From Streptomyces sp. NBC_01231 (lineage in GTDB: Bacteria; Actinomycetota; Actinomycetes; Streptomycetales; Streptomycetaceae): a stretch of 64,000 nt of DNA. The notes under the pieces are model-generated. The model was not told the DNA's origin and did no database searches. It saw only the letters and a program-made list of their open reading frames with translations. Positions 37,726 through 64,000 of this stretch are shown here, in pieces (the first letter of the stretch is position 1; each line of letters starts with the position of its first letter). The stretch is taken from contig CP108521.1 of assembly GCA_035999765.1 (NCBI GenBank), positions 9,982,001-10,046,000 on the forward strand. Reading direction: 5' to 3'. Made by a program: the position numbers and the translations under genes.

Positions 37726-38982
37726 TCAGCGCAGTGCGGCCACGAACTTCCCCAGCCGGGCGATCCCCTCGCGGAGCTCGTCCGCCGACGCCGCGTAGGA
37801 GAGACGGACGTGCGTCTCGGCGGTGTGCACGCCGAAGTCCCTGCCCGGGGTGAGGGCGACGTGCGCCTCCTGGAGCGCTCGTTCGCAGAACTCCCAGGAG
37901 GTGAGGCCGGTGCGGGCGACGTCGAAGTAGACGTAGAAGGCGCCGTCGGGCGGAACCGGGACCGGCAGTCCGATCCGTGCCAGGCCGTCGAGGACGAGCG
38001 CGCGCCGCTCGGCGAACTCGACGCGGCGGGCCTCGCAGACCGCGAGCGACTCGGGGGTGAAGCAGGCCAGAGCGGCGTGCTGGGCGGGGGCGGACGCGCA
38101 GAGGAAGTAGTTCTGGGCCAGGCGCTCCATCGCCGGCACGAGCGCCTCGGGGACGACGCACCAGCCGAGCCGCCAGCCGGTCATGCCGAAGTACTTCGAG
38201 AAGCTGTTGATGACGACGGCGTCGGGGTCCGACGACAGCGCGCTGCGCGGGGGCCCGCCCCGAGTGCCGTGGTCGCTCAGGTCGAGGTAGATCTCGTCGA
38301 CGATGCGCCAGGCGTCGCGCTCGCGGGCGAACGCGCAGATCGCCGCCAGTTCGTCGGCCGGGACGGAGGTGCCGGTCGGGTTCGACGGGGTGGCGATCAT
38401 GACGCCGCGTGTCCGGTCCGTCCAACTCGACCGCACCGACGAGGCGTCCAGCTGGAAGCGGGTGGCGGCGGTGGTGGGAACGAGCGTGACGTCGGCGCCG
38501 AAGCTCTCGACGATCTGCCGGTTGCAGGGGTACGACGGGTCCGCGATGAGTACCTCGTCGCCGGGGTCGACGAGGGCAGCGGTGGCCAGTACCAGGGCGG
38601 CCGAGGCGCCGGCGGTCACGACGACCCGGGCGGGATCGACGTCGACGCCGTGCTGATCCTCGTAGAACCGTGCGATGGCCTGCCGCAGGGCGGGCATACC
38701 GAGGGCCGCGGTGTAGGTCAACGGCCGTCCGTCCATGGCCTCGCGCATCGCGTTCAGTACGGCCGGGGGTGCTCCGAAGTCCGGTTCGCCGAGGCTGAGT
38801 TTGACGACGTGGTGCCCCTGGGCCTCCAGCATCGCGGCCTGCTTGCCGAACTCCATGGCATAGAACGGGGCGACGGCCTGGGCGCGTCGCGAGATCCGTA
38901 CGCCGCTGTCGCCGCTGTCGCCGCTGACGCTGATGCCGCTGTTGCCGACCGCCACGGGGCCGGTGCTCGTGAGGTGGTTCAT
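37726..38982 (-). CDS. Class I/II pyridoxal-phosphate aminotransferase
   Basis: 418 residues of the aspartate aminotransferase fold. LSLGEPDFGAPP, TAGASAALVLATAAL, ATPSNPTGT, the PLP lysine in NSFSKYFGMTGWRLGW and the carboxylate-binding arginine in HVRLSYA are all present. Substrate is not certain. The N terminus (residues 10-27) contains a small Ser/Gly repeat (SGISVSGDSGDSG). AGGAAG lies 6 bases before ATG 38982. It lies 2 kb from the NRPS cluster and could serve it, but need not. Confidence 0.85.
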   Translation of the reverse strand: MNHLTSTGPVAVGNSGISVSGDSGDSGVRISRRAQAVAPFYAMEFGKQAAMLEAQGHHVVKLSLGEPDFGAPPAVLNAMREAMDGRPLTYTAALGMPALRQAIARFYEDQHGVDVDPARVVVTAGASAALVLATAALVDPGDEVLIADPSYPCNRQIVESFGADVTLVPTTAATRFQLDASSVRSSWTDRTRGVMIATPSNPTGTSVPADELAAICAFARERDAWRIVDEIYLDLSDHGTRGGPPRSALSSDPDAVVINSFSKYFGMTGWRLGWCVVPEALVPAMERLAQNYFLCASAPAQHAALACFTPESLAVCEARRVEFAERRALVLDGLARIGLPVPVPPDGAFYVYFDVARTGLTSWEFCERALQEAHVALTPGRDFGVHTAETHVRLSYAASADELREGIARLGKFVAALR

Positions 38983-39254
38983 GTCGTCTTCCTGGTTCGC
39001 CGGTGAGTTGGTTGCGGCACGGGAAACGTGCCGGTCGCACCCGAGGCGGGGCTCGGATCCGGGCGGATCCACCGCTCGGATCCTCGCACGCGGACCAGTG
39101 TCCGTTCACCCGTCGCGACGAGCGCCCCGTCCCGAAGGGCCGGCCCTTGCCGTCCGCGGGCCGCACCGCGGACGACCCCGGCAGCGTTGCCGGTCCCGAA
39201 GCTGCCGGATTCCGTACATGCCCCCGCAGACCTGCCGGTGACAGGATCCTGGCC

Positions 39255-40882: not shown

Positions 40883-43168
40883 TCACCCGGTCGGCGCGTC
40901 GATTCCGTCGACGACATGACGCAGGAAGCCGGCCGCGGTGCCGCCGTCGCAGACCCGGTGGTCGAAGGTGAGCGACAGCTGGACCACCTTGCGCACCTCC
41001 AGGCGGCCGTCCACCACCCAGGGACGGTCGAGGAGGCGGCCCACGCCGAGCATCGCGGCCTGCGGATGGTTGAGGATCGGAGTGGCGCCGTCGACTCCGA
41101 AGACGCCGTAATTGTTGAGGGTGAACGTGCCGCCGGTGCGGTGTTCCGAGGGGAGCGTGCCCCGGCGGGCCAAGGCGGTCAGGCGCCGCAGTTCGGCAGT
41201 GAGGTCGTCGGGCGACAACCGCCCCGCGTCCCGGACGACGGGCACGACCAGACCGTTCGCGGTCTGCGCGGCGATACCGAGGTGCACCGCTGGTGGGCGG
41301 ACGATCTCCCCGCGCTCGGCGTCGACCCGGGCGTTGAGCTCGGGGAAGGCGGCCAGCCCGGCCAGGCACGCCCGAGCGAGCAACGGCAGCAGCCCGATGC
41401 CCAGGCGGTCCCGGGCGGCGAGCAGGCCCGTGGCGTCCGTGTCGGCCCAGATGGTCACGGCGGGGGTGTCCCGGTGACCGCGGACGAACTTCTCGGCGGA
41501 GGCGTCCAGGGGGACGCGCGTCTGTGCCCCGACGGCACCGGTCGCGCGACGCCGGTCGCCTGCCGGGGTGGTCCCGCCGCCCGCTCCCGCGCGGGCGCCA
41601 CCCCCGACTCCGTTCGTCGCTGCCAGGGACCATCGCTGCGCCGCGTTCGTCCCGTAACCGGTGAGCACGGCACCGGAGCCGGCCGCCGTGACCGTGACCG
41701 TGTGCGGGTCGGCGGAGGCGGCGTTCCGGACGGTGGGTTCGGCACCCGAGTCGGCTTTCTCAACGCTGAGTTCGGCGCCGACGTCGGCATTCCTGATGGT
41801 GGGTTCGGCGCGCGGGACGTCCTTCCCGACTGTGCGTTCGGCACCCGCCTCGGCTTCCCGTTCCGGGAGTGCGGCACCCGAGTCGGCTTCCCCGCCCGCG
41901 TCCGCTTCCGTCACCGTGAGCAGCGGTGCCCCCACCCGTACGACCTCGCCCTCCGCGCAGTGCAGGGCCGTCACCTTCCCGGCGTACGGACTCGGCAAGG
42001 TCACAGCGGACTTGGCCGTCTCCACCTCGACCACGACCTGGTCGTGCTCGACGCTGTCGCCCACGGCGACCTTCCACTCCAGCACCTCGGCGTCCGCGAG
42101 CCCCTCACCCAGGTCCGGCAGTCGGAACGTCCGGCCGGTCGCGGCCTGGGCGGACCGTGCCAAGTCGGCGCGGTGAGACGGTCGTTCGGCACCGTCGGGC
42201 ACCAGTCGACGCAGGCCGGCGAGCACCCGCTGCACGCCCGGCAGGTGGGCGCTCTCCAACAGCGGTGGCGGATAGGGGATGTCGAAACCGGTGACCCTCA
42301 ACACCGGCGCCCGCAGGGCATCGAAGCACGCCTCCTGGACCCGCGCCGCGATCTCGGCGCCCACGCCGGCGAAGCCCTGGGCCTCATGGACGACCAGGCA
42401 CCGGCCGGTCCGCCGCACCGAGGCGGCCGTCGTACGGTCGTCCAGCGGGACGAGGGTGCGCAGGTCCAGGACCTCCACGTCCAGGCCCTCGGCCGCCGCC
42501 CGCTCGGCTGCCTCCAGGGCCACGGCGACCGACGGGCCGTAGGCCACCAGCGTCACGTCCCGCCCGGCGCGGCGGACCGCGGACGTGCCGAACGGCGCCG
42601 TGCGGACGGGGAGTTCGACGTTCTCCCTGGTCCAGTAGTGACGCTTGGGCTCGAGGAAGACCACCGGGTCCGGATCGTCGATCGCCTCGCGCAGCAGTGA
42701 GTACGCGTCCTCGGCCGTCGCCGGGGTCACCACCTTCAGGCCCGCCGTGTGCGCGTAGTACGCCTCGCTGGAGTCGCTGTGGTGCTCGACCCCGCCGATG
42801 CCGCCGCCGTAGGGGATGCGGACGACCAGCGGCAGGGGCAGGGCCCCCCGGGTACGGTTGCGCATCTTGGCGATGTGGGAGGCGATCTGCTCGAACGCAG
42901 GGTAGGCGAACGCGTCGAACTGCATCTCCACCACGGGCCGGAACCCGGCCATCGCCATGCCGACCGCGAGCCCGGCGATACCGGCCTCGGACACCGGTGT
43001 GTCGAAGCAGCGCCGGTCGCCGAACACGTCCCTCAGACCGTCGGTGACCCGGAAGACGCCGCCGAGACGGCCGACGTCCTCGCCGAAGACGACCACCCGG
43101 TCGTCCGCGTCGAGCGCGTCCCGCAGGGCGGTGTTGAGGGCCCGCGCCATCGTCATGTCGGCCGCCAT
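40883..43168 (-). CDS. Fused branched-chain 2-oxoacid dehydrogenase E1-beta / E2 acyltransferase
   Basis: One uninterrupted frame of 761 residues. Residues 1-325 are E1-beta (transketolase-type: VVVFGEDVGRLGGVFRVT, EMQFDAFAYPAFEQI, GIGGVEHHSDSSEAYYAH). Residues 355-430 are a lipoyl domain with Lys386 in ETAKSA. A degenerate Ala/Glu/Gly repeat linker follows (about 430-510). Residues 565-761 are the E2 catalytic domain with His737 in DHRVCDGG. These are normally two proteins. The peripheral subunit-binding domain that docks E1/E3 cannot be found. ATG 43168 follows the E1-alpha stop by one base, with GGAGG 9 bases before it. Confidence 0.88.
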   Translation of the reverse strand: MAADMTMARALNTALRDALDADDRVVVFGEDVGRLGGVFRVTDGLRDVFGDRRCFDTPVSEAGIAGLAVGMAMAGFRPVVEMQFDAFAYPAFEQIASHIAKMRNRTRGALPLPLVVRIPYGGGIGGVEHHSDSSEAYYAHTAGLKVVTPATAEDAYSLLREAIDDPDPVVFLEPKRHYWTRENVELPVRTAPFGTSAVRRAGRDVTLVAYGPSVAVALEAAERAAAEGLDVEVLDLRTLVPLDDRTTAASVRRTGRCLVVHEAQGFAGVGAEIAARVQEACFDALRAPVLRVTGFDIPYPPPLLESAHLPGVQRVLAGLRRLVPDGAERPSHRADLARSAQAATGRTFRLPDLGEGLADAEVLEWKVAVGDSVEHDQVVVEVETAKSAVTLPSPYAGKVTALHCAEGEVVRVGAPLLTVTEADAGGEADSGAALPEREAEAGAERTVGKDVPRAEPTIRNADVGAELSVEKADSGAEPTVRNAASADPHTVTVTAAGSGAVLTGYGTNAAQRWSLAATNGVGGGARAGAGGGTTPAGDRRRATGAVGAQTRVPLDASAEKFVRGHRDTPAVTIWADTDATGLLAARDRLGIGLLPLLARACLAGLAAFPELNARVDAERGEIVRPPAVHLGIAAQTANGLVVPVVRDAGRLSPDDLTAELRRLTALARRGTLPSEHRTGGTFTLNNYGVFGVDGATPILNHPQAAMLGVGRLLDRPWVVDGRLEVRKVVQLSLTFDHRVCDGGTAAGFLRHVVDGIDAPTG

Positions 43169-43169
43169 C

Positions 43170-44384
43170 TCAGTGATCCTCCAACTCGGCCCGCAGCAAC
43201 GTCTGTTGAGCGGACAGCTGGGGGGTGGGCGCGGCGAGGACGTGGTCAAAGAGGCCCAGGGGGTCCAGGACCGGGTCCACGGAGAGCCGTTCGCGTACCT
43301 CGGCGGCGTACTCCTCAGCCTCGGCGACCACGGCCTTGACGTCGGCGTCGGTCAGCAGGCCGCACTCGAACAGTGCCGCTTCCAGCCGGGCGATCGGATC
43401 GCGGCCCCGCCAGTCCTCGGCCTCGGCGGCGGGCCGGTAGCGGGACGGGTCGTCGGCGCTGGTGTGCGGGCCCACGCGGTACGTGTGCGCCTCGACCAGC
43501 CACGGCCCGCCGCCCGCCCGCGCGTTCTCGACGGCCGTGCCGAGCACCGCGAGGACGGCGGCCGCGTCGTTGCCGTCGACCTGCTCCGAGCGAACGCCGT
43601 AGCCGACTCCCTTGTACGCCAGGCTCGGTGCCGCGCACTGGCCGGACATCGGTACGGAGATCGCGTACCCGTTGTTCTGCACCAGGAAGACCACGGGGGC
43701 CCGCAGCACGCCCGCCAGATTGACGGCCTCGTGGAAGTCGCCCTCGCTGGTGGCGCCGTCACCGACGAGCGCGAGCGCGACCGTGTCCGTGCCTTTGAGG
43801 TGTTCGGCGTGGGCGAGCCCGGTGGCGTGCGCGGTGTGTGTGGCCAGCGGGGTGCACTGGGGGGCGGTGCGGTGCCGTACGGGGTCGTAGCCGCAGTGGG
43901 CGTCGCCGCGCAGCAGGGTCAGCGCCTCGACGGGGTCGATCCCACGGCTGATCAGCGCGACGCAGTCGCGGTAGGTGGGGAACAACCAGTCCGTGGCCCG
44001 CAGCGCGAGGGCGGCGCCGACCTGACACGCCTCCTGCCCGAGGCTGGACGGATGGACCGCGAGCCGTCCCTGCCGGGCGAGCGCCGTCGCCTGCTCGTCG
44101 AAGCGGCGTCCGATGACCATCTTCCGGTACGCCGCCAGCAGCGCGTCCGGCGACGGGGCGGTGTAGGTCCGGGTCTCCTTCCGCTCCGGTTCACGCTCCG
44201 GCTCCGGCTCCCGCTTCTCGTTGTCCGACGAGTCGAATTCCAGAATTTTGCCATTCGATGACGGAGACGATGACTGATTCGATGACCGATTTGGTGCAAG
44301 AAAGGTAACCGGAACCGATGAAGGAAGCCAAGTGGAGCCGTCTTCCCCGTCCTTGGCAGCCGTATGCGTCGGCGTATCCATCAT
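43170..44384 (-). CDS. Branched-chain 2-oxoacid dehydrogenase E1-alpha
   Basis: 404 residues. ThDP-binding motif GDGATSEGDFHEAVNLAG ... QNN is intact, as are SSLGQEACQVGAALAL, PTYRDCVALISRG and the phosphorylation-loop-like HTSADDPSRYR. With the fused E1-beta/E2 it should decarboxylate 2-oxoacids from Val, Leu and Ile to acyl-CoA. The first 75 residues are Ser/Asn/Glu-rich and unlike the family, and their DNA (44230-44384) is distinctly A+T-richer than the surroundings. First gene of the leftward operon beside the NRPS cluster. Confidence 0.9.
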   Translation of the reverse strand: MMDTPTHTAAKDGEDGSTWLPSSVPVTFLAPNRSSNQSSSPSSNGKILEFDSSDNEKREPEPEREPERKETRTYTAPSPDALLAAYRKMVIGRRFDEQATALARQGRLAVHPSSLGQEACQVGAALALRATDWLFPTYRDCVALISRGIDPVEALTLLRGDAHCGYDPVRHRTAPQCTPLATHTAHATGLAHAEHLKGTDTVALALVGDGATSEGDFHEAVNLAGVLRAPVVFLVQNNGYAISVPMSGQCAAPSLAYKGVGYGVRSEQVDGNDAAAVLAVLGTAVENARAGGGPWLVEAHTYRVGPHTSADDPSRYRPAAEAEDWRGRDPIARLEAALFECGLLTDADVKAVVAEAEEYAAEVRERLSVDPVLDPLGLFDHVLAAPTPQLSAQQTLLRAELEDH

Positions 44385-44627: not shown

Positions 44628-45935
44628 ATGTCCCGAGTACGCCCGGGAACACGTCACTACACGGTTGTCTGTTCCTCATGCGGAACCCGCTACGAGGATG
44701 ACGGACTCGTCCTCGACTGCTCCCGTCGGCACGAACCGGCATTCCTGCGTACCGAGTACGACGGAACCGGCGCCCAAGCCGGTGTCGGCACCGGACTGTT
44801 CCGACATGCCCCGCTGCTGCCGGTCACGCGGACCTTCCCGGACGTGCCCGGCCCGGTCGTGCACCGCGCCCAACGACTCGGCCGCCGCATCGGCCTCGAC
44901 CGACTGTGGGTCGCCTTTTCCGGCCACTGGCCGGAACGCGGGGCGCAGCTGCCGACCTGCACCTTCAAGGACCTGGAGGCGTACACGGTGCTCGGCCGGC
45001 TGCCCGCCGCGCCGCCGGTCCTCGTCATCCCGTCGGCGGGCAACACCGCCGCCGCCTTCGCCTGGGCCGCCACCCGTCACCGCGTGCACTGCCTGCTCGT
45101 CGTGCCCGCCCCGGCCCTGGAGCGGATGCGCTTTCCCGCACCGCTCGACCCCTGCGTACGTCTCGTGGTCCTCGACGGCGCCGCCACCTACAGCGACGCC
45201 ATCGCCTGCGCCGAACTGCTCGCCGCGCTCCCCGGCCATCACGCCGAGGGCGGTTCGCGCAACGTCGGCCGCCGGGACGGCCTGGGCACCGTCATGCTGG
45301 CCGCCGCCGAGGTTCTCGGGCGACTTCCGGAGACGTATGTACAGGCCGTCGGCAGTGGTACGGGGGCCATCGGCGCCCACGAGGCGGCGCGTCGCGTCCG
45401 CGCGGACGGTGAGCCGCTGCCGCGCCTGCTGATGTGTCAGAACGCGCCCTTCGCACCGTTGTACGACGCTTGGCGCTCTGCCGACCCGGCCCCGGTCCCG
45501 GTCCCGGCACATCGCGAACACGAGCCGCTGGCCCGCGAACTGACCAACCGCCGCCCGCCGTTCGCCGTTCGTGGCGGTGTCCGTGACGTGCTGACCGAGA
45601 GCGGCGGCGACGTGCGATGTACGGACAACGAGGCCGCGCTCTCAGCCCTGGCCCTGTTCGAGGAGGTCGAGGGCATCGACATCGAGCCGGGCGCCGGGGT
45701 CGCCCTGGCCGCCCTGGCCGACGCCGCCCGGACCGGGCAGGTCCGACGGGACGAACTGGTGCTCCTCAACATCACCGGCGGCGGCCGGGCCCGTCAGGCC
45801 CAGGACATCGCCCTGGTCCCCGCCGAACCGTGGCTGCGCGTGGCGTGGCCCGGTCGCGACGAGGGTCCGCGCTGTGTCGCCCGACAGGTGGAACGAATAC
45901 TGACGGGCGCCGCCGCCGTCACGGAGGGCCGATGA
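44628..45935 (+). CDS. Cysteate synthase-family PLP enzyme
   Basis: 435 residues, fold type II (threonine synthase relative). It opens with a zinc-ribbon-like [12 protein letters not shown]. The PLP lysine lies in TCTFKDLEA, preceded by [11 protein letters not shown]; then [53 protein letters not shown] and LLNITGGG. These blocks match methanogen cysteate synthase (phosphoserine plus sulfite to L-cysteate) from memory far better than threonine synthase. ATGA overlap with the first NRPS gene implies it makes a building block for it. Another nucleophile is possible. Confidence 0.8.
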
Positions 45936-48900
45936 CCGTCGTACTGGAGCTGTCCGCCGCCCAGCGCTCGATGTGGTTCGGCCAGCGGCTCGACCCCGCC
46001 GGGGCCGCCTACAACGTCGGTGAGTACACCGAGATCCACGGCCCCGTCGATCCGGCGCTCCTCCGGGCGGCCGTGCGGGCAGTGGTGGACGCGACCGACA
46101 CCCTGCGAGTCCGCTTCGCGGCGGACGACGACACCGTCCGACAGATCGTCGAGGACGCTCCGGAGTGGGACCTGCCCGTCGTCGACGTCTCCGGCGACCC
46201 CGAACCCCGGAGCACCGCTGGACCCCGGAGCACCGCTGGACCCCGGAGCACCGCTGGACCCCGGAAGGCCGCTGGTCCCCGGAACACCGCCGGGCCCCGA
46301 AGCGCCGCCGGACCGCGAACCGCCGCCGAGGCGTGGACGGCCGCCCAGGCCTGGATGGCCGAGGACTTCGCCACCCCCTTCGCGCTCGACCGCGCCCCGC
46401 TCTTCCGGTACGCCCTGCTGAGGCTCGCGGACGATCACTGGATCTGGTACCAGCGCTACCACCACATCGCCGTCGACGGCTACAGCTGCTCCCTCGTAGC
46501 GCGCCGGGTGGCCGACGCCTACACCGCCCTCGTCGCCGGCGAGACCCCCGCCCCAGCACCGGCGTCCCTCGCCGCGCTGGTCGCCGAGGACGCGGCCTAC
46601 CGGGTGTCCGAACGGCACACGGCGGACCGGGACCACTGGACCCGCGCCCTCGCCGACCGCCCCGAGCCGCCGAGCCTGTCCGCCCGGCCACCGCGCGTCG
46701 CCGACCGCTTCCACCGCCGCACCGGTCATCTCCCGGAAGCGGCGGGGGAGTCGGTCCACGCCGCCGCCGAACGCACCGGCACCCGCTGGTCGCGGGTCGT
46801 CCTCGCGGCCACCGCCGCCTACCTGCACCGGCTCACCGGAGCCTCGGACGTAGTGCTCGGCCTCGCCGTCACCGCCCGGGAGAGCGACACCGAACTGGCC
46901 GTCCCCGGCATGGCGTCCAACGTGCTCCCGCTACGGCTGACGGTACGTCCCGACACACCCGCCCACGACCTCGTACGGCAGACCGCGAGGGCCACCCGCG
47001 ACCTGCTGGCGCGGCAACGGCACCGTGGCGAGGACCTGCGCCGGGACCTGGAGTGGCCGCACGACGGCCGGCGTTTCTTCGGGCCGGTCGTCAACATCAT
47101 GGCGTTCGGGCTGGAGTTGCGTTTCGCCGGACACCCGACCACCCGCCACAACCTGTCCACCGGCCCGGTCGAGGACCTTGCCGTCAACGTGTACGACCGC
47201 GCCGACGGCCACGGCGTACGCATCGATCTGGACGCGAGTCCCGAGCACTACACGGATGCCGAACTCGCCGCCCACCACCGGCGTTTCGCTCACTTCCTGA
47301 AGCGGTTCGCCATCGCCGCGGAACAGCCCGGATCCCCGGTCGGCCGGGTGCCGACGGCGCTGCCCGAGGAGCGTGCGGCGGCACACATCGAGGGGGCTCG
47401 GGCGAGCGCAGGCGCCATGACCGTGCCGGGACTCCTCGCGGCCCGTGTCGCCGCCGACCCGGACGCCACGGCCGTGGTGTACGGCGAACGCGCAATCAGC
47501 TACAGGGAGTTGGACCAGCGCGCCAACCGGCTCGCCCACCGGCTGCTGAACCTCGGTGTCCGGCCCGAGGACCGGGTCGCGGTCCTGATGCGCCGGTCCG
47601 ACACCCTGGTCATCGCGCTGCTGGCCGTGCTCAAGGCAGGCGGTGCCTATGTGGGCCTCGATCCGCGCGCCCCGGCCGCCCGCACCCGGAGGATCCTCGC
47701 CGAGACGGGCGCCGCCCTCCTCTTGACCGACACCTCGCCCACCGAGACGTACGAGGGCGTCGTCCCGGTCGCCGCCGACGATCCGACCCCCGGCGACGAG
47801 GCGGACACGGACCCGGGCGTCCGTCCGCGCCCCGCCCAACTCGCCTACGTCAGCCACACGTCCGGCTCCACCGGCATCCCCAAGGGTGTGGCCGTCACCC
47901 ACGAGGACATCACCGCCCTCGCCACCGACTCGGCGTTCGCCGACGGCGCCCACACCCGGGTCCTCGTGCACTCGCCGACGGCGTTCGACGCCTCGACGTA
48001 CGAGATGTGGGTACCGCTGCTCACCGGCGGCACCGCCGTGGTCGCCGGTGCCGCTCGGGATGTCGACGCCTCCTCCATAAGAGAGTTGACGGTACGTCAC
48101 AAACTGACGGTTCTGTGGCTGACCGCCGGGCTGTTCCGGCTGGCCGCCGAGGATGACCCGGGCTGCTTCGCCGGGCTCCGGCAGGTGTGGACCGGCGGCG
48201 AGGCCGTTCCGGCCGCCGCGGTACGCCGGGTTCTGGAAGCGTGCCCGGAGCTCACGGTCACCGATGGCTACGGACCCACCGAGACGACGACGTTCGCCAC
48301 CAGCCGCCCTTGCCCCGCGGGCTCGCCGGTGCCGGACCCGCTGCCCATCGGCCGCCCCCTCGACGGCATGCGCGCCCACGTGCTCGACGGCGCGCTCCAG
48401 CCCGTTCCGCGCGGCACGGTGGGCGAGTTGTACGTCGCCGGCCCCGGCGTGGCCCGCGGCTACCTGGGCCGGCCCGCCGCGACCGCCGAACGGTTCGTCG
48501 CCGACCCGTACGGGCCGCCGGGCGATCGGATGTACCGCACCGGCGACCGCGTCCGGATGACACCGGACGGCGAACTGGAGTACCACGGCCGAGCCGACGG
48601 CCAGGTCAAGCTGCGCGGGTTCCGTATCGAGCCCGGCGAGATCGAGGCGGCCCTCACGGCCCGCCCGGAGGTCGCCCAGGCGGTCGCCCTGGTCCGCGAG
48701 GACCGTCCGGGGGACCCGCGCCTGGTGGCGTACGTCGTCGGGGACGCGGCGGACCCGGACGGCCTGCGCGACCATCTCGCCGGACACCTTCCCGAGTTCA
48801 TGGTGCCCTCCGCCCTCGTGATCCTGGACCGGCTGCCGCTGACCGCCAACAGCAAACTCGACCGGGCCGCACTGCCCGCACCGATCTCGGCGAGCGCACG

Positions 48901-51900
48901 GAGCGACTCCGCGCGCACCCCGCACGAGGAGCTGCTGTGTGCCCTGTTCGCCGACGTCCTGGGCCTGCCGGACGTCTCACCCCACGACAGCTTCTTCGCC
49001 CTCGGCGGGCACTCCCTGCTGGCCCTGCGGCTCATCGGCCGGATCCGCAGCGCCCTCGGCGCCGAACCGACGCTGCATGAGGTGTTCCGTACACCGACTC
49101 CGGCCGGGCTGGCCCGGTCGATGACCACAGGGTCGGCCGTGCGGCCGGCGATCCCCCGGCCGACCGCACGGACGGGGGTCGGGGAGCCGCCCCTGTCGTC
49201 CGCGCAGCGGCGGTTGTGGTTCCTGCACCGGCTGGAAGACGCCGGAGCCGCCTACCACATCCCGCTCGCGCTACGGCTCACCGGCGGCCCCCTCGACGCG
49301 GACGCCCTGCGTGCCGCGCTCGCCGACCTCGTCGCCCGCCACGAGATCCTGCGCACCGTCTACCCCGACACCGACGGCATTCCGAGTCAACTCCTCCTGG
49401 GGCGCGCCTCCGCGCGGCCCGGGCTAACCGTCGAGAGCGTCACCGAGGCCGAACTGGCCCATCGCCTCGTCGAGTTGGCGGCCCGGGAATTCGACCTGGC
49501 CGAGGACCTTCCGCTGCGCGCCCACCTCCTCGCCCCCGGCGCCGACGACCACGTACTCCTGCTCGTCCTGCACCACATAGCCGCCGACGGATGGTCCCTC
49601 GCGCCCCTCCTGCACGACCTGTCCACCGCCTACCGGGCCAGGCTCGTGGGGCAGCCGCCACAGCAGTCGCCCCTGCCCGTGCAGTACGCCGACCACAGTG
49701 TCTGGCAGCGCGACGTCATCGGCCGACTCGAGGAACAGCAACTCACCTACTGGAAGTCGGCGTTGAATGGGAATCCCGACGAGCTGACGCTCCCCGCCGA
49801 CCGCCCTCGGCCGCCCCGTGCCACCCACCGTGGCGGGGACGTTCCCGTCCGGCTGGACGCCGACCTGCACCGACGCCTGCGCGCACTGGCCACCGAGAGC
49901 GGCACGACCGTGTTCATGGTCGTACAGGCAGCACTCTCCGCCCTGCTCACCCGGCTGGGCGCGGGCACCGACATCCCGCTCGGCACCCCGGTCGCCGGCC
50001 GCTCCGACGACATGCTCGACGATCTGGTCGGCTGCTTCGTCAACACCCTCGTCCTGCGCACCGACACCTCTGGCGACCCGACCTTCCGGGACCTGCTGGA
50101 CCGGGTCCGGGACACCGACCTGGCCGCCTACACACACCAGGATCTGCCCTTCGAGCACCTGGTCGAGGCCCTCAACCCGCCCCGGACACTCGCCCGGCAC
50201 CCGCTCTTCCAGGTGATGCTCGCCTTCCGCCCCACCGTCGCCGCCCGCCTCGACCTGCCGGGCCTCGAGGCGCGGACGGTGCCCGTGGAGACCGGCGCCA
50301 CGAAGATCGACCTGACGTTCAACCTGGGCGAGTGCCGCACGTCCGACGGCGCGCCGGACGGAATCGAGGGCGTCCTCCAGTACAGCGCCGATCTCTTCGA
50401 GCGGCGCACCGCCGAGGAGCTGGCCGCCCGTCTGGAGAGACTGCTGCGGGCCGCGGTCGACGATCCGGGCCGGACGATCGGCGCACTCGACATCCTGGCC
50501 CCGGACGAACGCCACCGTCTGCTGGCCGAGTTCAACGACACGACACGGGAGATCCCGGACACCACGTTCCCCCGGCTCTTCGAGGCATGCGCCGCCGAAA
50601 GCCCGGACGCGGTCGCGGTGACGGACGCGGAGACCTCGCTCACCTACCGCCAACTGGACGCCCGAGCCGACCGGTTGGCGCGCACGCTGGTGTCGCACGG
50701 CGCCGGTCCTGGGCGGACCGTCGCCTTCTCACTGCCCCGTTCCGTGGACCTGGCGGTCGCCATGCTCGCCGTCCTCAAAGCGGGCGCCGCCTATCTGCCG
50801 CTCGACCCCGAGCATCCCGCCGAGCGCACCGCCCACCTGCTCTCCGACGCGGCCCCCGTGTGCGTGATCGCCCGGGACCGAATCCCCGCCGACGTGCCGG
50901 TCGTCCACCCCGACGCCTCCCCGGACGACCCGGACCTGCCCCTCAGCATGGCCCGCCCCGCAGACCCCGCCTATCTGATCTACACCTCCGGCACCACCGG
51001 CCGCCCCAAGGGTGTCGTCGTGGAACACCGCAACCTCACCGCCTACGTGGCCCGGTGCGTCGAGGCGTACCCGAGCCTGCACGGTGCCTCTCTGTTGCAC
51101 GCCACCATGTCCTTCGACGCCACCGTGACGACCCTGCACGGGGCGCTCGCCGCCGGCGGCCGCGTTCACATCGCCGCGTTTCACGAGGCGGGCGCCGCGC
51201 CCCTGTCCGACGGCTACACCTTCCTCAAGGCCACCCCCAGCCATCTCCCGCTGCTGCCCGCCCTGCCGCACGACCTGTCGCCCACCGAGGAGTTCATGCT
51301 GGGCGGCGAGGCGCTGGTCGGCGAGGCCCTGCGCGCCTGGCGCCACGACCACCCGGACATCCGGCTGATCAACCACTACGGCCCCACCGAACTCACCGTC
51401 GGCTGCACCGACCACCGCATCGAGCCCCATGAGACCCTTCCGACCGGCCCGGTGCCCATCGGCCGACCCATGTGGAACACCCGGGCCCATGTGCTGGACG
51501 CCCACCTGAACCCGGTACCGGTCGGGATCGAGGGCGAGCTGTATGTGGCCGGCGCCCATGTGGCTCGCGGCTACTGGAGACGGCCCGGGCTGACCGCCGA
51601 ACGGTTCGTCGCCGACCCCTTCGGGCCGGCCGGCGAGCGAATGTACCGCACGGGCGACCTGGCCGTGCGCCGCGCCGACGGGGTCCTGGAACTGCGGGGG
51701 CGGGCCGACGGCCAGTTGAAGATCCGGGGGCTCAGGATCGAGCCTGGCGAGGTGGAGGGCGTACTCACCGCTCATCCCGGAATCGCCCAGGCCGCGGTGG
51801 CGGTACGTGAGGACACGGCAGGCGTCCGGCGCCTCGTCGGGTACGTCGTCGCCGCATCCGGCACCGCCGTCGACCGCGCCGCCCTCCTGGTGCACACCGG

Positions 51901-53716
51901 CCGCCACCTTCCCACGCACATGGTCCCCGAGGCCGTCGTGGTGCTGGACGCCCTGCCCATGACGCCGAACGGCAAGCTGGACCGCACCGCCCTGCCCGAG
52001 CCGCCCGCGGAGCGGGACACACCCCCGGGACGGACGGAGCCCCGCACCCCGCAGGAGGAGACCCTCCGGAAGCTGTTCGCCGACGTCCTCGACGTCCCGC
52101 CGGACGAGGTGGGTGCCGACGACGGATTCTTCGACCTCGGCGGTGACAGCATCACCTCGATCCACCTGGTGAGCCGAGCGATGACCGAGGGACTGCGGCT
52201 GACCCCGCGTGATGTCTTCGAACGGCGGACCGTCGCCGGGCTCGCGGCACTGGCAGCCGCCCGACCGGCCTCCGCACGGCAGGCGGAGCCTGAGGCGGCG
52301 GTGGGCGAGCTGCTCCTCACTCCGGCCATGCACCGCTTCCTCGACCGAGGCGGCCCGATCGACTCGTTCAGCCAGGCGGCCTTGCTCGTCACCCCCGCCG
52401 ACGCGGACGAGAAGCGGCTGACGACCGCACTCCAGGCCCTGCTGGACCACCACCACGCCCTGCGGATGCGGCTCACGGCCGCCGATCGGACGGCGACCGT
52501 CCCACCGCCCGGAAGTGTCGACGCGAGCGCCCTGTTGCAGCGCATCGAGGTGCCGGACGGGGACTTCGCGCCCGCAGTGGAAAAGCTGGGCAACACAGCT
52601 CCCGACCTACACCCGGAAGAAGGAAGGCTGCTGGACGCGGTCTGGTTGGACGCCGGACCGGGCTGCCCCGGTCGCCTCATGCTGACGGTCCATCACCTCG
52701 CCGTGGACGGCGTGTCCTGGAGCCTACTGCGCTCCGACCTGGCCGCCGCCTGGCGCGACGAGAAGCTGTCCGTGCCGGGCACCTCCTTCCGGGAGTGGGC
52801 CCGATTGCTGCGCAGTGAGGCCGATACGCCGACGCGGGTGGCCGAACTGGCCGTATGGCAGAAGCAGTTGGACGCGCCCGACCCGCAGCTCGGGGCGCGG
52901 CGGCTGGACCCGGCACGGGACGTGGCCGGCGCGATGCGTCACCTCACCCGGGAACTCCCGGCCGAGAGCACCACCTTGTTGCTGACCATCGTGCCCGCGG
53001 CCTTCCGCGCCGGACCCGACGACGTGCTGCTCGCCGGGCTGGCCGCCGCGTTCGTCCGCCGGCGACGCCCGGCAGACGGCCACCCGGCTCTGCTCCTCGA
53101 CATCGAGCGGCACGGCCGCGAGGAGATCGCCGACGGTGTGGACCCGTCCCGGACCGTCGGCTGGTTCACGAGCGTCGTGCCCGCCCGGCTGGACCTCGCC
53201 GGCGTCGACCTCGACGACCCGGCCGACGTCCTCAAACGCGTCAAGGAACAGCTGCGGTCCGTACCCGACCACGGCATCGGCCACGGCCTGCTCCGCCACC
53301 TCAACCCCGCCACCGGACCGGCCCTCGCCGCGCTCCCGGTCCCGCAGATCGGCTTCAACTACCTCGGCCGCACGCCCACGGAACCGACCGACGACTGGTC
53401 GACGGCGCCCGAAGAACTTCCCGGGCTGTCCCCTCTGGGCGCTGCCCACGACCCGGGCCTGCCCGTGGCGCACGGTCTGGAGATCACCGCCGTGACCGAC
53501 GCCGCCGGCCGACTCGCCGCCACCTGGTCCTGGGCGCCCGGCGTCTGGTCGGAGGGTGACGTGCGCACCCTCGCCGACCTGTGGTGCGAGGAACTGGCCG
53601 CCCTGGCCGACGGTACCCGGGCGGGCGGGCACACCCCGTCCGACCTGCCCCTGGTGTCCCTGTCCCAAGCAGAGATCGACGAACTCGAAGCCGAGTTCGG
53701 AAGCGAGTGGAGGTAA
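45932..53716 (+). CDS. NRPS 1: C-A(Val-like)-T-C-A(Asp-like variant)-T-E
   Basis: 2594 residues. C1 about 5-450 (HHIAVDG near 177); A1 495-985, pocket DAYWWGGTFK, Val-like; T1 with Ser1028 (GGHSLL); C2 1085-1530, LCL type, HHIAADG; A2 1535-2020, pocket DATKMGHVGK, close to Asp codes (DLTKVGHVGK) but Leu to Ala; T2 with Ser2073 (GGDSI); epimerase 2120-2560 ([18 protein letters not shown]). The tail [17 protein letters not shown] is a donor docking helix. A C domain at the N terminus with no upstream module implies an acyl or peptide starter from elsewhere. The start overlaps the cysteate synthase stop. Confidence 0.93.
46205..46312 (+). repeat. Six 18-base tandem units inside the first C domain of NRPS 1
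   Basis: Unit CCCCGGAGCACCGCTGGA; the first three copies are identical, the next three diverged. They code for PRSTAG-like hexapeptides inserted in the N-terminal lobe of C1, ahead of the HHxxxDG motif. In frame, so the protein stays open. Confidence 0.9.
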
Positions 53717-53722
53717 CTCACG

Positions 53723-61588
<7,866 letters not shown>

Positions 61589-61639: not shown

Positions 61640-64000
61640 ATGAGGACGCAGCCCGCGCAGGTCGACGTACTGCCCCTGACCCCGCTCCAGGAAGGCCTGC
61701 TCTTCCACGCCCTGTACGAGCACGAACGCGACGCCCGCGACGTCTACCTGGTCCAGCTGGTCTTCGACCTCGACGGCACCGTGGACGCGGGCCGGTTGCG
61801 CGCCGCCGCCCAGGCCCTGCTGGACCGGCACCCGACCCTCCGGGCGGCCTTCCGGCGCCGGCGCGGCGGCCGGCCGGTGCAGGTCGTACCCCGCCGGGCG
61901 GTGCTGCCGTGGCGCGAGACCGACCTGACCGGCACCGAGCCCGAGGCGGCGTGGTCCCGCCTGCTCGACGAGGACCGGGACCGGGGATTCGACCCAGCCA
62001 CCCCGCCACTGATCCGGTGCACCCTGGCCCGCACCGGCCCGACCCGGCACCGGCTGCTCCTCACCCACCACCACATCCTGCTCGACGGGTGGTCGGTCGC
62101 CGTCCTGCTGCGCGAACTCCTCGCCCTGTACGAGTCCGGCGGTGACCCCGCCGCCCTGCCCCCGGCTCCGCCCTACCGCACCTTCCTGGACTGGCTGGGC
62201 CGCCGGGACCGTCCCGTCGCCGAGGCCGCCTGGCGGGACGCGCTGGCCGGACTGACCGAACCGACCCGTCTTGCCCCGCACGCCGTCGACGGCCGCGGCT
62301 CGGGCGAACTCGCCCAGTCCCGGGCCGAGTTGACGACAGAATCCGGCACTGCCCTGACCGCGCTGGCCCGGAGCCTGGGCGTCACCGTCAACACCCTCGT
62401 CCAGACCGCCTGGGCGATCCTGCTGAGCCGGACGACGGGACACGACGACGTCGTCTTCGGTGCCACCGTCTCCGGCCGGCCGGCCGAGCTGCCCGGTGTC
62501 GAATCGATGGTCGGCCTGTTCATCAACACCATCCCCACTCGCGTCCGACTGCGCCCCGACGAGCCGTTGAGCGGTCTGCTGCGGCGCGTGCAGGAGGGAT
62601 ACGTCCGCCTCCTCGACCACCACCACCTCGGGCTCGCCGACATCCAACGGGCGGCCGGCGTCCCCGAACTCTTCGACACACTGGTCGTGTTCGAGAACTA
62701 CCCGATGGACGACAGCACGGACGGGAACACGGACGGGAGCGCCTCGGGCCGGGGTGACGGCCTGTGTGTCGTCGGCACGGGCGGCCGCGACGCGACCCAC
62801 TACCCGGTGACCCTGGTCGCGCTTCCGGGCCCCCGGCCGCGCTTCCGGCTCGCCTACCGGCCCGATCTCTTCGACGCCGACTGGGCCGATGCCACGCTGG
62901 CCCGTCTCGTACGGCTCCTGGAGTTGATGGCCGCCGACCCGGAACTCCCGCTCGGCCGCCTCGGACTCGCGCCCCGCGAAGAACACCGAGCCCTGACGCC
63001 CGCCCCCACCCCAGCGCCCGCGACCCGCACCCTCACCGACCTGTGGACGGCCCAGGCCGCCGCCACCGCGGACGCCGAGGCGGTGCTGGACCACGGCGAC
63101 TCGCTGACGTACCGCGAACTGGACTCCCGCGCCGAGCGGTTGGCCCGTCGGCTCGCCGCCCTCGGGTCCGGCCCCGAGCGGATCGTCGGCATCGCGCTGC
63201 CCCGCACGGCGGATCTGGTCACCGCCGTCCTCGCCGTCCTGAAGTCCGGCGCCGCCTATCTGCCGCTCGACCCCGCCTATCCGCCCGACCGTCTCGCCCA
63301 CATCGTGGACGACGCCAGGCCGGTCGTCGTCCTCGCGACCAGCCGGACGGCTGCGGTGTTGCCCTCGGGGACCGCGACGCTGCTTCTCGACGAACCCGTC
63401 GAGCAGGTTGATCTGGCTGACCGCCAAGGCCCTTTGGCAGGGGGTAACTTGTCGCCCGACAATCTCTCCTGCGTCACCTACACCTCCGGCTCCACCGGTC
63501 GGCCCAAGGGAGTGGCGGCCACCCATCGAAGCGTGGCCGAGTTCGTCGCGTGGACGCACACCGCGCTCGGCCCCGAGCGGTTGGCCAAGGTGCTGTTCTC
63601 GACCTCGCTCAACTTCGACGTGTCCGTGTTCGAGATCTTCTCGCCGTTGCTGTGCGGTGGCCGGATCGAGATCGTCGAGAATCTGCTGGCCCTCACCGCG
63701 CAGGGCCGTGAAGGCCGGGATGGCTCGGACCACTGGGACGCGAGCCTGATCAGCGGGGTGCCGTCGGTCATGGCCACGGTCGTCGCCGACCGCCCGGACG
63801 TCTCCGCGCGGGTGGTCGCGCTGGGCGGCGAGCCCGTTCCCGAGCAACTGCTCGCCGACCTCGAAGCGACCTTCCCGGGAGCCCGGATCGTCAACTTCTA
63901 CGGGCCGACCGAGGCGACCATCTACGCGACCGCCTGGCAGTCCGACCTCGACCCGTGTCATAAGGACGGCCCGCCGCCGCTCGGTCACCCCCTCGCCCGC
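61640..64000 (+). CDS. NRPS 3, partial: C-A... (runs off the window)
   Basis: 787 residues are visible and the frame is open at the window end. C5 about 8-450 is DCL type ([26 protein letters not shown] near 144), fitting the epimerase at the end of NRPS 2. A5 starts near 460 with [11 protein letters not shown] and reads pocket DVFSAGFIY up to position 331, which I cannot assign. ATG 61640 follows GGTGAG by 6-7 bases, 51 bases after NRPS 2. At least this module and an offloading domain remain outside. Confidence 0.9.
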   Translation, partial: MRTQPAQVDVLPLTPLQEGLLFHALYEHERDARDVYLVQLVFDLDGTVDAGRLRAAAQALLDRHPTLRAAFRRRRGGRPVQVVPRRAVLPWRETDLTGTEPEAAWSRLLDEDRDRGFDPATPPLIRCTLARTGPTRHRLLLTHHHILLDGWSVAVLLRELLALYESGGDPAALPPAPPYRTFLDWLGRRDRPVAEAAWRDALAGLTEPTRLAPHAVDGRGSGELAQSRAELTTESGTALTALARSLGVTVNTLVQTAWAILLSRTTGHDDVVFGATVSGRPAELPGVESMVGLFINTIPTRVRLRPDEPLSGLLRRVQEGYVRLLDHHHLGLADIQRAAGVPELFDTLVVFENYPMDDSTDGNTDGSASGRGDGLCVVGTGGRDATHYPVTLVALPGPRPRFRLAYRPDLFDADWADATLARLVRLLELMAADPELPLGRLGLAPREEHRALTPAPTPAPATRTLTDLWTAQAAATADAEAVLDHGDSLTYRELDSRAERLARRLAALGSGPERIVGIALPRTADLVTAVLAVLKSGAAYLPLDPAYPPDRLAHIVDDARPVVVLATSRTAAVLPSGTATLLLDEPVEQVDLADRQGPLAGGNLSPDNLSCVTYTSGSTGRPKGVAATHRSVAEFVAWTHTALGPERLAKVLFSTSLNFDVSVFEIFSPLLCGGRIEIVENLLALTAQGREGRDGSDHWDASLISGVPSVMATVVADRPDVSARVVALGGEPVPEQLLADLEATFPGARIVNFYGPTEATIYATAWQSDLDPCHKDGPPPLGHPLAR

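What the first reader, a model, noticed from the sequence alone, without database searches (positions are those of the whole stretch)
44628..53716. NRPS operon with its own cysteate synthase and a modified Asp pocket: predicted L-cysteate incorporation
Seen: the PLP enzyme at 44628-45935 shares many sequence blocks with methanogen cysteate synthase ([41 protein letters not shown]) and overlaps the NRPS 1 start by 4 bases. The second A domain of NRPS 1 reads DATKMGHVGK. Known: Asp pockets read DLTKVGHVGK; the lysine and histidine bind the side-chain acid. Inference: Leu to Ala enlarges the pocket to take the sulfonate of cysteate, the sulfur analogue of Asp, and the E domain then gives the D form. 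A sulfonated nonribosomal peptide made from dedicated cysteate would be new to my knowledge.
Basis: partly seen in the sequence, partly recalled or inferred. Interest (0 to 1): 0.92.

Follow-up and report, generated by a model that had tools for sequence, protein, structure and literature searches.

The report
Streptomyces cysteoamide-type cysteate peptide cluster
This stretch encodes a bacterial assembly line that very likely makes its own sulfur-acid amino acid (cysteate) and builds it into a small peptide; the reading is sound, but such a system was already published in 2018 from Streptomyces lincolnensis (cysteoamide).

Summary
The PLP enzyme at 44628-45935 is a cysteate synthase (CS): TIGR03844 368.4 bits, cut-off 324.9, inside the CS clade and apart from threonine synthases. 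A2 of NRPS1 reads DATKMGHVGK. The newness claim fails: a cysteate-containing nonribosomal peptide of S. lincolnensis was published in 2018 (title only), and a later paper describes a lactone of phenylacetate, Val, cysteate, Thr, beta-hydroxyleucine and beta-alanine, citing it (passage). The window cluster has five A domains in fitting order, a 2-oxoacid dehydrogenase, a P450 and a thioesterase; S. lincolnensis L4 has the orthologous cluster with five identical codes and one CS. Beyond that: in the Asp-type pockets read here (best places of three searches over 392 Streptomyces genomes, plus CS neighbourhoods), Ala for Leu at position 236 occurred only in CS genomes, in three backgrounds. A Ser variant occurs both in CS clusters and in two genomes without CS. 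This suggests a readable cysteate code and further unassigned cysteate peptides.

The parts
40883..43249 (-). E1-beta / lipoyl / E2 acyltransferase fusion of a 2-oxoacid dehydrogenase (start codon not settled); likely makes the acyl-CoA (phenylacetyl) starter
   Evidence: Pfam Transket_pyr, Transketolase_C, Biotin_lipoyl, 2-oxoacid_dh; present in orthologous clusters
43170..44384 (-). E1-alpha of the same 2-oxoacid dehydrogenase
   Evidence: Pfam E1_dh 240 bits; below the cut-offs of pyruvate dehydrogenase equivalogs; conserved with the cluster
44628..45935 (+). Cysteate synthase (O-phosphoserine + sulfite to L-cysteate, by family; reaction recalled)
   Evidence: TIGR03844 above cut-off; PDB 9k3c; tree
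45932..53716 (+). NRPS1: C-A1-T-C-A2-T-E
47417..48901 (+). A1, code DAYWWGGTFK (valine, recalled)
50561..52021 (+). A2, code DATKMGHVGK, predicted L-cysteate
51119..51121 (+). Codon GCC of Ala236, the residue that is Leu in most related Asp/Asn-type pockets read
52292..53713 (+). E domain after the cysteate module (predicts D-cysteate); limits approximate
   Evidence: Condensation-family stretch of NRPS1 (4 stretches) with HHLAVDG at 52691
53723..61588 (+). NRPS2: C-A3(Thr code DFWNVGMVHK, recalled)-T-C-A4(DAMLIGAVCK)-T-E
61640..64000 (+). NRPS3: C-A5(DVFSAGFIYK)-T-TE; continues beyond the window (L003:640-4827)

Best explanation
A cysteoamide-type gene cluster. Cysteate synthase makes L-cysteate from O-phosphoserine and sulfite (by family). 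NRPS1 module 1 loads valine, acylated by its first C domain with phenylacetate supplied by the divergent E1/E2 2-oxoacid dehydrogenase. Module 2 (A2, small residue 236) loads cysteate and its E domain epimerises it. NRPS2 adds Thr and a leucine that becomes beta-hydroxyleucine (P450). NRPS3 adds beta-alanine and its thioesterase closes a lactone. Shown here: gene order, families, pocket codes, orthology with S. lincolnensis. Inferred: every substrate and the product.
For: CS above the curated cut-off and inside the CS clade. Five A domains with codes in the order Val, Asp-like, Thr and two unassigned, then TE, against the lactone of phenylacetate, Val, cysteate, Thr, beta-OH-Leu and beta-Ala in PMC13260306 (passage). 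S. lincolnensis L4: orthologues at 77-92% identity for E1/E2, CS, three NRPSs and P450, five identical codes, one CS over the cut-off in the genome. A2 code identical in 18 of 18 named orthologous loci where it is covered (2 more loci do not cover it) and in 12 of 12 orthologues of the genus sample. Phenylacetyl-CoA joined to L-Val by a starter C domain is described for JBIR-78/95 (passage in PMC11546977).
Against: The 2018 paper could not be read, so that its cluster is this one is inferred from species, CS count and residue order. The E1 parts score below pyruvate dehydrogenase cut-offs and no listed model names phenylpyruvate. A4 and A5 were matched to Leu and beta-Ala by position only. Variants exist: G193 and G228 showed no A domain with the A4 code and no P450 match in the 39.8 kb read; A1 differs in L007, L014 and by one residue in L021, and A3 in L007.
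Confidence: 0.93

Rival explanations
1. A2 activates ordinary aspartate and the CS product serves something else.
For: K278 and H322 are those of Asp pockets (recalled); the discodermin A domain that takes cysteate is predicted as Asp (passage in PMC12858407), so a code alone cannot tell.
Against: Ala236 Asp-type pockets occur only in CS genomes in the sets read. The Leu236 twin DLTKMGHVGK was 4 of 4 in genomes without CS; one more lies in a CS genome (G140) but on another contig (C2) than its CS (C1). CS overlaps NRPS1; cysteate is a residue of the published peptide.
Confidence: 0.05
2. The PLP enzyme is a threonine synthase or makes another beta-substituted alanine.
For: Weak similarity to threonine synthases (69.2 bits).
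Against: Well over the CS cut-off; the tree places it in a clade with Bacteroidota and an archaeal CS, while Streptomyces threonine synthases lie on a separate long branch (the archaeal row is long and its place unsure).
Confidence: 0.03
3. Small residue 236 is a mark of shared ancestry of these NRPS families and not a cysteate determinant.
For: 12 of the 16 DATKMGHVGK rows are one orthologous cluster; Ser236 is also found in two genomes without CS over the cut-off (G067, G198); G187 has Ile236 beside CS; the sign test on independent pairs has no power (3 pairs on starred branches).
Against: A236 occurs in three backgrounds (MGHVGK, VGAVNK, IGAVNK) on separate tree branches, each in a genome with CS; G346 and G353 carry DLTKVGAVNK and DATKVGAVNK in one NRPS cluster.
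Confidence: 0.25

Closest known systems
Cysteoamide / cysteate-containing peptide of Streptomyces lincolnensis (Wang et al. 2018, J Org Chem 83:7102; title seen in a reference list, content only through a passage of PMC13260306)
   Same: Residues fit the five modules; S. lincolnensis L4 has the orthologous cluster with five identical A-domain codes and one CS.
   Different: No difference in module order or codes found against L4; proteins of the shared genes are 77-92% identical, and the UvrA-like gene next to the window's P450 gave no match in the L4 stretch.
JBIR-78/JBIR-95 (Kibdelosporangium; Takeda et al. 2017, seen as references and a review passage)
   Same: Phenylacetyl-Val start; cited among described cysteate enzymes.
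   Different: Heptapeptides; not compared by sequence here.
Cysteate synthase of PDB 9k3c/9k3o and model TIGR03844 (organism not shown by the call)
   Same: Same family by curated cut-off and over nearly full length.
   Different: Here beside an NRPS; the family's known role in coenzyme M synthesis is recalled.
Discodermin (Entotheonella)
   Same: Cysteate in a nonribosomal peptide, taken by an A domain predicted as Asp.
   Different: Its authors found no candidate genes for cysteate in that genome.

Membership tests
Cysteate synthase (TIGR03844) | Score over the curated equivalog cut-off | tested here: met
   368.4 vs 324.9 bits
Cysteate synthase (TIGR03844) | Groups with cysteate synthases, not threonine synthases | tested here: met
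   46-row tree, CS clade of 36 rows at 100/99, four Streptomyces threonine synthases outside
Cysteate synthase (TIGR03844) | Makes cysteate from O-phosphoserine and sulfite | not testable with these tools
   needs an assay
Cysteoamide cluster | Five modules in the order Val, cysteate, Thr, (OH-)Leu, beta-Ala, then thioesterase | tested here: inconclusive
   Five modules and TE met; Val, Asp-like and Thr codes fit; A4 and A5 assigned by position only
Cysteoamide cluster | Orthologous cluster in S. lincolnensis | tested here: met
   (strain L4)
Cysteoamide cluster | Gene-by-gene match with the cluster printed in the 2018 paper | not tested
   paper not held
Threonine synthase | Score over a threonine synthase cut-off | tested here: not met
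   best 69.2 vs 303 bits

The most novel reading that the evidence does not exclude
A small residue at position 236 (Ala, sometimes Ser) of an Asp-type pocket is a general, repeatedly evolved cysteate code. With a cysteate synthase in the cluster it predicts sulfonated nonribosomal peptides in at least four further Streptomyces cluster types seen here (G109/G363/G121, G116, G346/G353, G023; perhaps G349/G303), which predictors may call Asp.
Probability: 0.6. Interest if true: 0.5.

Novelty: already known. Interest (0 to 1): 0.35.

Why it matters
The window itself is a further copy of a published pathway, so its own novelty is low. Its use is as the anchor of a rule: comparing Asp-type pockets with and without cysteate synthase points to one residue that may tell cysteate from aspartate, which would let sulfonated peptides be found by sequence and tested by a single swap.

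Tried and rejected
Threonine synthase was rejected. The aminotransferase at 37726-39072 looked like a partner of the E1/E2 genes, but no match to it was found in the stretches of S. lincolnensis L4 and G313 read, so it is left out of the cluster; the same holds for the UvrA-like, beta-lactamase-like and MFS genes. Sulfopyruvate/sulfoacetyl-CoA as starter was considered and dropped once phenylacetate was seen as the starter. A link between the CS-like subfamily (105-144 bits in seven genomes) and Ser236 pockets was considered from G067 and G198. In G067 the CS-like gene lies about 20 kb from the DSTK domain, between A domains whose codes resemble those of G029, and G029 showed no DSTK code in 39.8 kb. 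The link was not kept; G067 and G198 stand as exceptions.

Rows dropped before counting. In the A-domain tree six cysteoamide-type copies were left out and G376's DITK domain was entered once. Rows of G121 and G363 were labelled as CS clusters although their A domains lie on other contigs than CS. In the CS tree six of 30 genus loci and nine of 26 named loci were left out (copies, fragments and the window itself under another id). The domain lists are the best-scoring places of each search, not all A domains. No control search was run from the DATKIGAVNK domain of G023.

Full report
What is there. The window is 64 kb of an 11.3 Mb single-contig chromosome; the named relatives of its CS at 75-88% identity are Streptomyces, with one record titled only Actinobacteria bacterium. 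The frame at 44628-45935 encodes 435 residues and passes the NCBIfam cysteate synthase model TIGR03844 with 368.4 bits against 324.9. The closest solved chain is titled cysteate synthase (9k3c, 297 bits); threonine synthases reach 44.6. Its stop overlaps the NRPS1 start by ATGA. Downstream lie NRPS1 (C-A-T-C-A-T-E), NRPS2 (C-A-T-C-A-T-E) and NRPS3 (C-A-T-TE), then a cytochrome P450 and a UvrA-like protein. Upstream and divergent are E1-alpha and an E1-beta/lipoyl/E2 fusion.

Pocket codes. Read by alignment: A1 DAYWWGGTFK, A2 DATKMGHVGK, A3 DFWNVGMVHK, A4 DAMLIGAVCK, A5 DVFSAGFIYK. The meanings Val (A1), Thr (A3) and Asp for DLTKVGHxGK are recalled. Ala236 of A2 is at 51119-51121.

Known system. 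Wang et al. [quoted passage not shown] lincolnensis; I saw the title in the reference list of PMC12858407, and the paper is not held. [quoted passage not shown] This fits the five modules, the 2-oxoacid dehydrogenase, the P450 and the thioesterase. A review passage (PMC11546977) describes a starter C domain joining phenylacetyl-CoA to L-Val in JBIR-78/95. S. lincolnensis L4 has orthologues of the E1/E2 genes, CS, three NRPSs and P450 at 77-92% identity, five identical codes and one CS over the cut-off in the genome. Searches of the open library for cysteate synthase with nonribosomal peptide or with biosynthetic gene cluster gave 0 papers each, so that library's own wording would have suggested novelty.

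How widespread. A scan of genome contigs gave 26 loci; 20 of them are this cluster or pieces of it, and A2 reads DATKMGHVGK in 18 of 18 where it is covered, while A1 differs in L007 and L014 and by one residue in L021. In the genus sample 23 of 392 genomes have CS over the cut-off, and G288 is just below at 320.1 bits; 12 of these 24 carry the cysteoamide-type A2 domain.

The residue-236 rule. The 90 A domains read (30 given as loci, 60 fetched) were typed. DATKMGHVGK: 16 of 16 in CS genomes. Of the 71 domains from genomes without CS, 0 had Ala or Ser at 236; 2 had Gly, in another pocket (DGSKLGVVNK), and 1 had Ile (DITKMGHVGK, G376). DLTKMGHVGK was 4 of 4 without CS there. Two further searches started from DATKVGAVNK and DSTKIGHVGK; 60 loci, partly overlapping the first set, were typed. 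Of 50 from genomes without CS, 2 had Ser236 with the TK pocket (DSTKVGHVGK in G067 and G198) and none had Ala236 with it; one, DAATVAAVCK, is not of this pocket type. One DLTKMGHVGK and one DLTKMGHIGK there lie in the CS genome G140, on another contig than its CS. Seen from CS: of the 24 genomes, 21 have an Ala236 or Ser236 Asp-type pocket, within about 25 kb of CS except in G363 and G121, where it lies on another contig; G187 has DITKMGHVGK beside CS; G093 and G288 showed no A domain in the stretches read, about 25-40 kb on each side. G346 and G353 hold both DLTKVGAVNK and DATKVGAVNK in one cluster. Among named loci, L023 (CS 55% identical) has one A domain of another kind in its 21 kb.

Limits. 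On the A-domain tree (96 rows, code columns left out) Ala/Ser236 sits on about five separate branches by my reading, all labelled as CS clusters in the rows used; the tool's own count, with Gly included, is 6 changes. G067 and G198 were found later and are not in it. The sign test on independent pairs is without power: 3 pairs on starred branches, median p 1. CS clusters were sought on purpose and read more fully than others, so more distant small-236 pockets in genomes without CS may have been missed; the two Ser cases show this. Ala236 is therefore the safer mark. The CS tree (46 rows) puts the window enzyme with its orthologues inside a clade that also holds Bacteroidota and an archaeal sequence (100/99), apart from Streptomyces threonine synthases and a CS-like group; the tool warns that some long branches there may join falsely.

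Verdict. What may be new is the comparative rule and the set of further CS-bearing clusters. I found no paper holding the codes DATKMGHVG, DATKIGAVN, DATKVGAVN or DSTKIGHVG in the library, which lacks most subscription journals, so I cannot say the rule is unpublished.

Noticed in passing
L190 (G346) and L193 (G353): An NRPS cluster beside a cysteate synthase carries both DLTKVGAVNK and DATKVGAVNK pockets, a natural Asp/cysteate comparison within one cluster.
   Followed up: partly
G067:C1:8311839-8313227 (L263) and G198:C65:710-2203 (L256): DSTKVGHVGK pockets in genomes without a cysteate synthase over the cut-off; exceptions to the residue-236 rule.
   Followed up: partly
L055-L060: A Streptomyces PLP-enzyme subfamily scoring 107-144 bits against the cysteate synthase model, below its cut-off and above threonine synthases, some near NRPS genes; function unclear.
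   Followed up: partly
G093 (L194, L077, L078, L195) and G288 (L196, L081, L082, L197): Cysteate synthase with no NRPS adenylation domain found in the 79 and 66 kb read around it; possibly another sulfonated metabolite.
   Followed up: no
L064-L065, L202-L203 (G023): A diverged cysteate synthase with a DATKIGAVNK pocket and E1-alpha / E1-beta relatives (62-69%) about 20 kb away; perhaps another phenylacetylated cysteate peptide.
   Followed up: partly
L003:10464-12044 (about window 71464-73044): Acyl-CoA dehydrogenase-like gene downstream, conserved at 85-86% beside the S. lincolnensis and G313 clusters; role in the pathway unclear.
   Followed up: no
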